Notes under the pieces: model-generated
The model's database searches: none
Seen by the model: the letters and a program-made list of their open reading frames with translations, nothing else
What the model was told of the DNA's origin: nothing
From: an uncultured Pseudomonadota bacterium
GTDB taxonomy: Bacteria; Pseudomonadota; Alphaproteobacteria; Rs-D84
Reading direction: 5' to 3'
Assembly (NCBI GenBank): GCA_949298405.1
Contig: CASFWA010000004.1
Span: forward strand, 1-64,000
Length of the DNA: 64,000 bases
Shown here: one piece after another, positions 24,393 to 30,975 of the stretch
Position numbering within the stretch: position 1 is the first letter of the stretch
Layout: every line of letters begins with the position of its first letter
Made by a program: the position numbers and the translations under genes

Positions 24393-24737
24393 ATGGTAAA
24401 AAAAATCAAGATGATGTACAAAACCTTTGTCCTGGAAACTGTATCAAATGTATATGTTCCGAAAGAACCAGTCGTTGCAAAACATGGTGCGTATCGCTAT
24501 TGTTGCTGTGTGCATGTGTGCGATAAATTTTTAACCTACCCTGTGGATAAATGGGGGCGCAGAATAATCCCGGTTGGTTCGTCTTGTCCGTATGTCAAAA
24601 TTGATACTGCGTTGGCTAATGGGCATTCGGTGCCTTGTTCTGGTGCTTTTGTTTATGTAAATGGAGAATTTTCGACTTTACGCAAAGGAATGCGAAACAT
24701 ATATGATGTATATGTCGGCGCAAGAGAACGAGATTAA
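24393..24737 (+). CDS. Hypothetical protein between rimM and trmD (114 aa)
   Basis: A 114-residue basic protein beginning 11 bases after rimM and ending three bases before trmD, preceded by a GAGG site. It contains the unusual cluster YRYCCCVHVC near residue 38 and two more Cys further on, which could bind metal. No signal peptide or membrane segment is seen. I do not recognise a family. Its tight position inside the trmD operon points to expression with translation genes; any role in the ribosome or tRNA is inference. Confidence 0.7.
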   Translation: MVKKIKMMYKTFVLETVSNVYVPKEPVVAKHGAYRYCCCVHVCDKFLTYPVDKWGRRIIPVGSSCPYVKIDTALANGHSVPCSGAFVYVNGEFSTLRKGMRNIYDVYVGARERD

Positions 24738-25422: not shown

Positions 25423-25815
25423 ATGAGCATTATTAAAAAAATTGAAGCAGCGCAAGTTGCAAAACTGAAAGGGGATAAAAAAATCCCTGCATTTAAATCT
25501 GGTGATACAGTAAAAGTACACGTAAAGATTAAAGATGGTGATAAATTCCGTATTCAGGTTTTTGAAGGCGTTGTTATCGCGCGTGATGGCGGCGAAGGAA
25601 ATAATGCATCCTTTACTGTACGTCGTGAATCTTATGGTGTTGGTGTAGAACGTAAGTTCCCATTGTACAGCCCTGCAATTGAAAAAATTGAAAAGGTACG
25701 TACAGGTAAGGTTCGCCGTGCAAAATTGTTCTTCTTGCGTGGATTGTCAGGCAAAAAAGCACGTATCGTTGAAGATTTGTCTGCTAATGCTGCTGAAAAG
25801 AAAGACAACAAATAA
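25423..25815 (+). CDS. rplS: Ribosomal protein bL19
   Basis: Large-subunit protein at the 30S interface, 130 residues. Family blocks [29 protein letters not shown] and [19 protein letters not shown] are present. The AAGGAAAAG site overlaps the end of trmD. It is the last gene of the operon and is followed by a terminator. Confidence 0.97.
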
Positions 25816-25833
25816 TCATTGTATTATTTATGT

Positions 25834-25863
25834 TAAAAAAACCGCAGGTTCTGCGGTTTTTTT
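25834..25863. terminator. Terminator between rplS and the phosphoesterase (convergent)
   Basis: AAAACCGCAG/CTGCGGTTTT stem with T run; probably bidirectional. Confidence 0.9.
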
Positions 25864-26386
25864 AACGTGAAAATTCACGTGCTTTTGTAATGAACGGATT
25901 TACCAATGGAACAGGCTTATAGTCCGTTTTTTCTACACATACATTTATACACTGTTGATGATTTTCAAAGTCATAATCTTGTATGTGTATATGACCGTGG
26001 TAATTAACAATTGGTGGATTGTTTCCAAATTCTTCAAGCGGTTCATGAGATAATAGTATGTATTGTTCTGCATCGTATATAGGATGAGGAAAGACTTTTT
26101 CAAAACCACAAGATAACCACCATGTTTCCGAATGCCCCCTATCATGATTGCCCATGATAAGAAATTTACGACCGTGCATTTGACTTAGAACTTTTGCAAC
26201 TTTTTCTTTCGTTGCACCGTACATTATATCGCCTAACCAATAGCATATGTCTTGTTTGCCGACAGTTGCATTATATCTTTCAATTAATGCATTGTTCATT
26301 TCTTGCACGTCATTGAATGGCCGTTTGCCATTGATAATTATTCTTTCAGAGTCAAAATGAGGGTCGGAATATATAAACTTTGCCAT
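25862..26386 (-). CDS. Metallophosphoesterase, phage-like type
   Basis: Calcineurin-like phosphoesterase, 174 residues. Metal motifs in order: SDPHFD (the first His/Asp pair), LGDI, GNHDRGH, SHEP and HGHIH. The stretch RPFNDVQEMNNALIERYN is typical of small phosphoesterases carried by phages and mobile elements. The AAAGGAG site overlaps the end of the AbiEii gene 12 bases upstream, so the two are cotranscribed. The substrate is unknown; it might act on a nucleotide product of its neighbour, which is speculation. Confidence 0.88.
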   Translation of the reverse strand: MAKFIYSDPHFDSERIIINGKRPFNDVQEMNNALIERYNATVGKQDICYWLGDIMYGATKEKVAKVLSQMHGRKFLIMGNHDRGHSETWWLSCGFEKVFPHPIYDAEQYILLSHEPLEEFGNNPPIVNYHGHIHIQDYDFENHQQCINVCVEKTDYKPVPLVNPFITKAREFSR

Positions 26387-26398
26387 GTTTTAACTCCT

Positions 26399-27325
26399 TT
26401 ATAGTGTCTTTAAATTATTGTTTAGTTGAATTAAATTGCGAATGATGCTTTGCCAACTTTCAGGATTCTTTAAGAATAATTCTGATATTTTGGCATAATC
26501 TTCACCCAGACGCGTTAATGTCGCATCTTCTGGAATCAGCTCTACTTCTGCAGTAGATGTCAGCGGTGGTATGCCTTTTGTTGTGTATTTGGTTTGATAA
26601 TTCGATATATCAAATAAAAATTCTTTTGTTTCGTTTAAATTTACATGGTCTGCAATTCTGGCAACGTCATAGTAGTGACGCGAGAATGTTTTCCTTAATC
26701 TTGGCATTTCTGTCTTTGCAGTGGAATGTAAAGCAAATACTTTGTCCCAGAATGTTTGCTCGTACCGTACTGTTGGTATGTCCCCCATTTCCTGCTTGAT
26801 AGAATACGGAACAACTGAACGATGTTGAATTTTATTTTCACTATATTTACGAGGAATGATTTCAAGGCATAAATGCCCCATTTCTGGTCCGAATGCAGAT
26901 TTATATAATAAATGTAAAGTCGGAGAAGATAAAAATTGTTCTTTGTTTTCTAATGCACGCCAATCTCGGTCTGTAGCAATCATAAATTGCTGGTCTTGGT
27001 TTATGATGTAATTTACTTTTGGCTTTAATACGTCAAAAACAAAGGTTTTAAATTGTTTCTTAAAGTTTGTTAATTGCTTTTTAGAGTGTTCGTCTGGTAA
27101 ATCTTCAAAATCTGCACATGCTAAATCAATGTCTTGACCGATACGTTGTGAAAAATTATAAGATTTAGTTATAGAACCACCCCCAGCAAAAACAAATTGT
27201 TTGCTGATATATGGGTCATTGAACAATTCTTCTAAAATGGCGCATTCTATATAGTCTTTCTCCGCCATTCTGGGGTTGCTTGTTCGTTGAAATGCTTTAT
27301 ATGTATCTGTGCTTATCTTTATCAT
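26399..27325 (-). CDS. AbiEii/AbiGii-type nucleotidyltransferase
   Basis: A 308-residue protein of the family that includes the AbiEii toxin of abortive-infection and toxin-antitoxin systems. The nucleotidyltransferase signature is FAGGGSITKSY followed by RIGQDIDLA (the DID metal-binding pair). The preceding EKDYIECAILEELFNDP is also typical. No AbiEi antitoxin gene is adjacent; a phosphoesterase follows instead. I prefer ATG 27325 to GTG 27346. No ribosome-binding site is present, while TAATAT lies seven bases before ATG, so the mRNA may be leaderless. Confidence 0.85.
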   Translation of the reverse strand: MIKISTDTYKAFQRTSNPRMAEKDYIECAILEELFNDPYISKQFVFAGGGSITKSYNFSQRIGQDIDLACADFEDLPDEHSKKQLTNFKKQFKTFVFDVLKPKVNYIINQDQQFMIATDRDWRALENKEQFLSSPTLHLLYKSAFGPEMGHLCLEIIPRKYSENKIQHRSVVPYSIKQEMGDIPTVRYEQTFWDKVFALHSTAKTEMPRLRKTFSRHYYDVARIADHVNLNETKEFLFDISNYQTKYTTKGIPPLTSTAEVELIPEDATLTRLGEDYAKISELFLKNPESWQSIIRNLIQLNNNLKTL

Positions 27326-27332
27326 AGTGATT

Positions 27333-27362
27333 ATATTATTGCACACAAAACTAGTTTGTCAA
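27333..27362 (-). promoter_or_regulatory. Promoter of the AbiEii-type gene
   Basis: Minus-strand TTGACA (27357-27362), an 18-base spacer, then TAATAT (27333-27338), seven bases before ATG. Confidence 0.6.
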
Positions 27363-27377
27363 CAATTTTGTCAACAA
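27356..27377. promoter_or_regulatory. Tandem operator-like repeat TTGTCAACAA
   Basis: Two identical decamers at 27356-27365 and 27368-27377, each with palindromic ends TTGT/ACAA and separated by two bases. They cover the -35 box of the AbiEii promoter. This looks like a repressor site, though no regulator is assigned. Confidence 0.5.
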
Positions 27378-27428: not shown

Positions 27429-27788
27429 ATGAAAAAAGTTCTTAATTTTTTGGCGTTTTCTTCTTTGTTTGTCGGTGGGTTTGTGTTAGATGCAAATGCC
27501 TATGTGGATAAAAATAGTGCTGTCATTCGTATTATGAATAAAGCGGCAGGAAAAGTACAGACTGTCACCCTGCCCGTTGGCAAAGAAGCAGAATTTGAAA
27601 AATTATCTTTGATAATAAGAACTTGTAAGCAAACAGACCCTTTCCAAGCAGAAAACTTTTTTGCTTTTGTTGAGATGTCAAAAAAATCAGAAGGTAAAAT
27701 TTTTAGTGGGTGGATGAATGCCAACGAACCTGGCGAAAACCCCGTGCAAAACGCAGATTATGATGTATGGTTAGTTAAGTGTGAATAA
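27429..27788 (+). CDS. DUF2155 periplasmic protein
   Basis: A 119-residue exported protein with a signal peptide (hydrophobic core near residues 5-20, cleavage near ANA). The core IIRTCKQTDPFQAENFFAFVEM and FSGWMNANEPG to YDVWLVKCE matches DUF2155, a family found in Alphaproteobacteria with no known function; two Cys may form a disulfide. The upstream frame is open to 27309 but the promoter's -10 box overlaps an ATG at 27420, so ATG 27429 is chosen. It is the first gene of a run ending at tsaD. Confidence 0.85.
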   Translation: MKKVLNFLAFSSLFVGGFVLDANAYVDKNSAVIRIMNKAAGKVQTVTLPVGKEAEFEKLSLIIRTCKQTDPFQAENFFAFVEMSKKSEGKIFSGWMNANEPGENPVQNADYDVWLVKCE

Positions 27789-29973: not shown

Positions 29974-30975
29974 CTAACGATTTTTTTCTTCTGTTAAGGC
30001 AAAATTATTAATAATACTCATTTCTTTTTGTTTTTTTAAAATTGAGATACCTTTTTGAAAGTCTTTATTATCTTTTACTTTTGTATATAAATTTTTTATT
30101 TTTTCTATTTCTTGTTTTATTATTTCAATGCGAATTTTTGTTGCTAATTTAGGATTGTGCAAAAATTCACTTGCCGAATTTTTAAAGTTATATAACGCAT
30201 TTCGCATGTTTTTAATTTCTGGTTTGTTCTTTACGTTTACATGTTGTTTTTTAGGTAATGCATCATATTCTTTTATAAGTCTGTCAATGTCCAGCCAGCC
30301 AAGACGGGCGAAATCTACATTAAACATGTAGTCCGCGTTCTGATATTTTGAATCAGCAAAATCTATAATCGATAAAGTTTTTGTTTCTCTGTTAAAGAAT
30401 ATGTTGTGTTCATTCATATCACCATGCGCAAAAACTATACTTGCATCATTATCAGACGCGACATCAAACCAATCTTTTGCATCTTGTACAATTTGCATAT
30501 CTTCCTTGGAAATATATTTTGATAACTTATCAATAAGAACCGGAATGGATACTTCACCTAGATATTCAACACTTGTAAAACTGTCAAAAGTTTCTTTCTG
30601 CGTAAGAACTTGTTTTGATTGATTTATATCATTTATAAAATGTGCAATCCCTTTATAAATAATATCTACTTCCTTTTTTGTAAGAGTTTCAAAAAAAGAT
30701 GATGATAATGGTTTGCCGGTTGCACGTTCTTCTACGACAAAATATTCTTTTGAAGAAATTTCTAGTGTGCGCGGCACAAAATAATTCTTGTTGTTTGCGG
30801 CAAGAACTTTATCTGATGTATCTTTTGCCTGAATCTGTTTGCCTAGCCATGTGTTTAATATCTTTGAATTAGAAGTGTCCACAGGGCGTTTTATGACCAA
30901 ACCATCTGCAAGATATACAAGTGTTTCCCTGGGGGCATTTGTATTTATTTGTTGCAAATTATCCAGTTTGCTCAT
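29974..30975 (-). CDS. APH-fold phosphotransferase-like protein
   Basis: 333 residues with a protein-kinase-like APH fold. The catalytic loop FAHGDMNEHNIFF (near residue 185) keeps the HGD..N pattern and the metal-binding SIIDFADS follows. The N-terminal lobe includes VIKRP and YFVVEERATG. The last 80 residues are a lysine-rich helical extension. The substrate is unknown; family members phosphorylate aminoglycosides, choline, homoserine and other small molecules. A GGAG site supports the start. A second, degenerate member lies at 52511. Confidence 0.8.
   Translation of the reverse strand: MSKLDNLQQINTNAPRETLVYLADGLVIKRPVDTSNSKILNTWLGKQIQAKDTSDKVLAANNKNYFVPRTLEISSKEYFVVEERATGKPLSSSFFETLTKKEVDIIYKGIAHFINDINQSKQVLTQKETFDSFTSVEYLGEVSIPVLIDKLSKYISKEDMQIVQDAKDWFDVASDNDASIVFAHGDMNEHNIFFNRETKTLSIIDFADSKYQNADYMFNVDFARLGWLDIDRLIKEYDALPKKQHVNVKNKPEIKNMRNALYNFKNSASEFLHNPKLATKIRIEIIKQEIEKIKNLYTKVKDNKDFQKGISILKKQKEMSIINNFALTEEKNR

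What the first reader, a model, noticed from the sequence alone, without database searches (positions are those of the whole stretch)
25862..27377. AbiEii-type nucleotidyltransferase paired with a phosphoesterase
AbiEii toxins normally sit next to an AbiEi antitoxin. Here the partner is a phage-like metallophosphoesterase, 12 bases downstream in one operon, inserted between the rplS operon and DUF2155. A system in which the phosphoesterase reverses or neutralises the nucleotidyl transfer would be a new toxin-antitoxin or defence arrangement.
Basis: inference. Interest (0 to 1): 0.7.

Follow-up and report, generated by a model that had tools for sequence, protein, structure and literature searches.

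The report
Toxin-like transferase paired with phage-like phosphoesterase
In a group of tiny-genome gut bacteria, a probable RNA-modifying toxin has lost its usual antidote gene and is instead always found with a phage-like phosphate-cutting enzyme, which may undo what the toxin does.

Summary
In a Ca. Enterousia-like alphaproteobacterium (0.9 Mb genome), an intact AbiEii/MenT-type nucleotidyltransferase gene (26399-27325, minus strand) is followed 12 bp later by an intact metallophosphoesterase (MPE, 25862-26386), between rplS and DUF2155. The pairing is not chance: of 201 genomes of the order, 33 carry this AbiEii and all 33 carry the MPE directly downstream; neither gene is found complete without the other. 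At 16 of 22 empty sites rplS lies directly beside DUF2155, and presence of the pair changes at least 18 times on a 55-genome tree. Outside the lineage, 15 of 18 related AbiEii loci have the usual AbiEi-type (DUF6088) gene upstream; 22 of 22 carriers tested lack one anywhere. Catalytic residues of both enzymes are invariant, but the serine that MenA-type antitoxins cause to be phosphorylated is kept in all 14 such relatives compared and in only 6 of 33 MPE-paired proteins. Best reading: a toxin-antitoxin variant in which a phage-like hydrolase replaced AbiEi. That it erases the nucleotidyl adduct is plausible but untested. It is not in a defence island and is confined to one lineage. New variant of a known kind, worth a bench test.

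The parts
26399..27325 (-). AbiEii/MenT-type nucleotidyltransferase gene, 308 aa from ATG 27325 (GTG 27346 lies upstream of the predicted transcription start)
   Evidence: PF08843 and PADLOC AbiEii; fold matches JHP933, MenT4, MenT3; D65, D67, K195, H217, D220 invariant in 24 MPE-paired homologues
25862..26386 (-). Metallophosphoesterase gene, 174 aa, phage-like (PHROG 547)
   Evidence: D8xH10, GD53, GNHD 79-82, H114 and HGH 130-132 invariant in 24 homologues; fold match 1xm7
27335..27362 (-). Promoter of the pair: TTGACA, 16 nt, AATAAT; AbiEii ATG 9 nt further on, suggesting a leaderless message
   Evidence: TTGACA found at the same place in 31 of 32 relatives
26394..26398 (-). AGGAG ribosome-binding site of the MPE
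   Evidence: read directly from the sequence
25842..25856 (.). CCGCAG-GTT-CTGCGG hairpin flanked by A-run and T-run between rplS and the MPE; looks like a two-way terminator
   Evidence: read directly from the sequence; not listed by the scan
25423..25815 (+). rplS, flank of the insertion site
27429..27788 (+). DUF2155-type gene (name from the finding), other flank of the insertion site; start inferred

Best explanation
The two genes form one toxin-antidote-like module. The AbiEii protein is a MenT-type nucleotidyltransferase that most likely adds nucleotides to an RNA end (the tRNA 3'-CCA end, by analogy to MenT1 and MenT3) and can stop translation. In this lineage the usual AbiEi-type (DUF6088) antitoxin has been replaced by a phage-like metallophosphoesterase made from the same operon. 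The phosphoesterase keeps the transferase harmless, most likely as an enzyme that hydrolyses the added nucleotides. Shown here: the pairing, joint presence and absence, absence of AbiEi, intact active sites, loss of the phospho-acceptor serine in most members. Inferred: toxicity, the RNA target, and the erasing reaction.
For: 33 of 33 carriers of this AbiEii have the MPE directly downstream. Empty sites are clean at 16 of 22 non-carriers. At least 18 presence/absence changes on the flank-gene tree, at least 10 forced by well-supported branches, both genes together each time. Outside the lineage 15 of 18 AbiEii loci have an upstream DUF6088 gene, which PADLOC calls AbiEi, while 22 carriers have none. 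Catalytic residues of both proteins invariant. MenT3 S78/MenT1 T39 position: Ser in all 14 relatives of the AbiEi-type set, but Gly 19, Ser 6, Asn 4, Cys 4 in 33 MPE-paired proteins. Both genes under purifying selection, dN/dS 0.03-0.15. Precedent for an enzymatic antitoxin: ATfaRel, PMC11782079.
Against: No toxicity, RNA target or hydrolysis was tested. The pair is confined to one lineage. Adjacent genes can be lost by one deletion, so joint loss shows linkage more than dependence. Two genus members (G132, G166) carry a distant AbiEii with neither AbiEi nor MPE beside it, so AbiEii may not always need an antidote. Six of 33 MPE-paired proteins keep Ser. MenT1 T39A can still be neutralised by binding (PMC11375011), so loss of this residue does not exclude another antitoxin mode.
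Confidence: 0.42

Rival explanations
1. The MPE is the antitoxin but works by binding the transferase, or by acting on the transferase itself (for example as a phosphatase), not by erasing an RNA adduct.
For: MenA1 and other MenA antitoxins work by binding and by induced phosphorylation (PMC10435456, PMC11375011). The operon order and SD-led MPE would suit excess antidote.
Against: All MPE metal-site residues are invariant, which a pure binder would not need; the usual phospho-acceptor is absent in 27 of 33, so a phosphatase would lack that substrate.
Confidence: 0.2
2. Both proteins are effectors of one anti-phage module: the transferase marks RNA and the phosphoesterase cuts it or a nucleotide product.
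For: AbiEii is an abortive-infection family; patchy distribution with many joint changes is typical of defence genes. A phage MPE, Gp48 of mycobacteriophage A10ZJ24, disrupts host DNA (PMC12287305); its relation to this family was not tested.
Against: Fixed housekeeping locus, no other defence genes beside it; the AbiEii would then have no antidote.
Confidence: 0.12
3. The pair is an RNA 3'-end repair module: the phosphoesterase cleans damaged ends and the transferase rebuilds them.
For: The genus has no recognisable CCA-adding enzyme, so 3'-end repair might be useful.
Against: tRNA genes encode CCA (32 of 33 sampled), most genus members lack the pair, and AbiEii relatives pair with AbiEi antitoxins.
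Confidence: 0.08
4. The two genes are neighbours by one old insertion and have no functional link; they are lost together because they are adjacent.
For: All copies sit at the same or a locally rearranged site, so single deletions or exchange over shared flanks could move both.
Against: Divergence is deep (AbiEii down to 36% identity) with purifying selection on both and no solo copy or remnant seen at empty sites.
Confidence: 0.13

Closest known systems
AbiE (AbiEi-AbiEii) type IV toxin-antitoxin systems, including DUF6088-AbiEii pairs
   Same: The transferase belongs to the AbiEii family and has the same catalytic residues; the nearest relatives outside the lineage are DUF6088-AbiEii pairs.
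   Different: No AbiEi/DUF6088 gene; a phosphoesterase lies downstream instead of an antitoxin upstream.
MenAT systems of Mycobacterium tuberculosis (MenT1, MenT3/TglT, MenT4)
   Same: Predicted fold matches MenT3 and MenT4; D65, K195 and D220 correspond to MenT3 D80, K189 and D211.
   Different: The phospho-acceptor position (MenT3 S78) is Gly, Asn or Cys in 27 of 33, Gly in the window copy; partner is an MPE, not MenA.
toxSAS systems with the hydrolase antitoxin ATfaRel
   Same: Conceptually similar: an enzyme that removes the toxin's product serves as antitoxin (PMC11782079).
   Different: Unrelated toxin and hydrolase families; erasing not shown here.
PHROG 547 phage phosphoesterases
   Same: The MPE belongs to this family; closest relatives outside the lineage are on two viral contigs, 46% identity.
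   Different: No AbiEii beside the viral or 26 cellular relatives examined.

Membership tests
AbiEii / DUF1814 nucleotidyltransferase family | Sequence match to the family profile above the curated cut-off | tested here: met
   PF08843 63.3 bits against a cut-off of 22.5
AbiEii / DUF1814 nucleotidyltransferase family | Catalytic DxD, Lys and Asp residues | tested here: met
   D65, D67, K195, D220 invariant
AbiEii / DUF1814 nucleotidyltransferase family | MenT-like fold | tested here: met
   Model pLDDT 92; best PDB matches JHP933, MenT4, MenT3
AbiE type IV toxin-antitoxin system | AbiEi antitoxin gene encoded with AbiEii | tested here: not met
   No DUF6088/AbiEi in 22 carrier genomes; control G188 found
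AbiE type IV toxin-antitoxin system | Toxicity of AbiEii neutralised by its partner | not testable with these tools
   needs expression tests
MenAT system | Ser/Thr phospho-acceptor two residues before DxD | tested here: not met
   Gly63 in the window protein; Ser in 6 of 33 relatives
MenAT system | Transfer of nucleotides to tRNA 3' ends | not testable with these tools
   needs biochemistry
Calcineurin-type metallophosphoesterases (PHROG 547) | Family profile match and complete metal-binding motifs | tested here: met
   PHROG 547 E 9e-35; motifs invariant in 24 homologues
Anti-phage defence island gene | Located among other defence genes | tested here: not met
   Flanks are rplS, trmD, rimM and DUF2155, tsaD

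The most novel reading that the evidence does not exclude
A toxin-antitoxin arrangement whose antidote is a phage-derived phosphoesterase that removes the nucleotides a MenT/AbiEii toxin adds to RNA ends, having replaced the AbiEi antitoxin.
Probability: 0.33. Interest if true: 0.82.

Novelty: new variant of a known kind. Interest (0 to 1): 0.62.

Why it matters
AbiEii/MenT toxins are widespread, and studied MenA antitoxins bind them or drive their phosphorylation (PMC11375011). A natural replacement of AbiEi by a hydrolase would be an enzymatic way of controlling this toxin family, would suggest a role for a large phage phosphoesterase family without assigned function, and gives a two-gene test case for enzymatic detoxification. 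It occurs in a genus reported to have a low prevalence of defence systems (PMC11834463).

Tried and rejected
AbiEii in IMG/VR by profile: none. AbiEii in phage records: one distant unannotated hit. No AbiEii beside 26 cellular and 2 viral MPE relatives. 'MPE without AbiEii' in G145 is a contig end inside the MPE; G203 has a divergent MPE fragment at another locus. AbiEii matched no solved structure by sequence, only by fold. A literature search for AbiEii with metallophosphoesterase returned only one phage-genome paper, which I did not read. Leaderless expression is weak evidence, since 5 other of 56 window genes look alike in the scan. That the pair replaces the missing CCA-adding enzyme was given low weight because tRNA genes encode CCA and most genus members lack the pair.

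Full report
What is there. The window lies in a 0.9 Mb genome close to Candidatus Enterousia. On the minus strand an AbiEii-family nucleotidyltransferase (26399-27325) is followed by a metallophosphoesterase (MPE, 25862-26386) after 12 bp. Family matches are well above cut-off and the predicted folds are confident (pLDDT 92 and 88). The best solved fold matches are JHP933, MenT4 and MenT3/TglT for AbiEii and the uncharacterised Aquifex protein 1xm7 for the MPE.

Is the pairing real? In 201 genomes of the order, 33 carry a close AbiEii and all 33 carry the MPE directly downstream (gaps of 2-24 bp in the loci measured). One further genome has an MPE cut by a contig end and one a divergent MPE fragment at another locus. 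Three have only a distant AbiEii: two without AbiEi or MPE beside them, one with an AbiEi-like gene. Among 22 genus members without the pair whose locus was read, 16 have rplS directly beside DUF2155; four are rearranged, one is cut by a contig end and one is ambiguous. On a tree from six flanking genes (55 genomes) presence/absence changes at least 18 times, at least 10 forced by well-supported branches, for both genes together. AbiEii, MPE and flank trees agree only in part, so some local exchange has occurred. dN/dS is 0.03-0.15 for both genes in three close pairs. Because the genes are adjacent, one deletion can remove both, so this is strong evidence of linkage and weaker evidence of dependence.

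What do relatives pair with? In a 385-genome survey of the class, AbiEii hits outside the order fall in 18 loci of 15 genomes. Fifteen of the 18 have a DUF6088 gene directly upstream by profile search; a further one (G053) has a DUF6088-like open frame visible but not scored; one is cut by the contig end, and one showed none in the stretch held. Three plasmid relatives also have DUF6088. PADLOC models call the two DUF6088-type proteins tested AbiEi. None of 22 carrier genomes has a DUF6088 match anywhere, while the control genome G188 does. MPE relatives in 399 Pseudomonadota genomes (26 loci in 15 genomes) and on two viral contigs have no AbiEii beside them. The closest MPE relatives found outside the lineage are the viral ones (46% identity; profile scores about 156 against at most 86 for cellular loci), so a phage source is likely but not shown.

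Active sites. The AbiEii residues matching MenT3 D80, K189 and D211 (PMC10435456) are D65, K195 and D220, invariant in MPE-paired and other relatives. The position of MenT3 S78 and MenT1 T39, the residue phosphorylated in the presence of MenA antitoxins (PMC11375011), is Ser in all 17 rows (14 distinct genes, 12 of them with a DUF6088 gene seen) of the comparison set. In 33 distinct MPE-paired proteins it is Gly 19, Ser 6, Asn 4, Cys 4. The sequences are related by descent, so this is not a test on independent samples. All MPE metal-binding motifs are invariant in 24 homologues.

Expression anatomy. A TTGACA box lies at the same place in 31 of 32 relatives scanned (in the exception, L003, the script probably chose a wrong ATG), and the AbiEii ATG lies 4-10 nt after the -10 box, which suggests a leaderless message; the MPE usually has a Shine-Dalgarno-like site. 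Five other window genes look leaderless in the same scan, so the contrast is only suggestive.

Mechanism. I favour a toxin with an enzymatic antidote. The tRNA-end target is borrowed from MenT1 and MenT3 (PMC10435456; PMC11541572, abstract) and was not tested. An enzymatic antitoxin has a precedent in ATfaRel (PMC11782079). The genus lacks a recognisable CCA-adding enzyme and encodes CCA in its tRNA genes. If AbiEii extends CCA ends, exact removal would matter because over-trimmed ends could not be rebuilt; this is inference. Rivals are a binding antitoxin, a two-effector defence module, an RNA-repair pair, and mere adjacency.

Verdict. Observation confirmed; interpretation partly supported. 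By anatomy a new variant of AbiE/MenAT-type systems; not a member of AbiE as defined, because AbiEi is missing.

Noticed in passing
genome G000 and the 34 same-genus genomes searched: None of the 35 genus genomes has a match to the CCA-adding enzyme head domain PF01743, while most genomes of sister families do; 32 of 33 sampled tRNA genes of G000 encode CCA.
   Followed up: partly
L187:14652-14726 (G000:C1:214652-214726): The tRNA-Phe gene of this genome ends in CC followed by TTAG instead of CCA, although 29 relatives checked encode CCA. Cause unknown; an insertion or an assembly error are possible.
   Followed up: partly
L075:3351-4334 and L076:1477-2529: Two genus members carry a different, distant AbiEii with no AbiEi or MPE beside it, near a gene that looks like tsaC/sua5 (gene name by eye).
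   Followed up: partly
window 29974-30975: A choline kinase/APH-like phosphotransferase gene lies between tsaD and xseA; relatives often have other small genes there.
   Followed up: no
L161:952-3468: One of the two closest viral MPE relatives lies beside a gene matching the RdRP family PF05183.
   Followed up: no
window 24393-24737: A small gene between rimM and trmD; relatives have different small genes at this place, as if it were a variable spot inside a ribosomal-protein operon.
   Followed up: no
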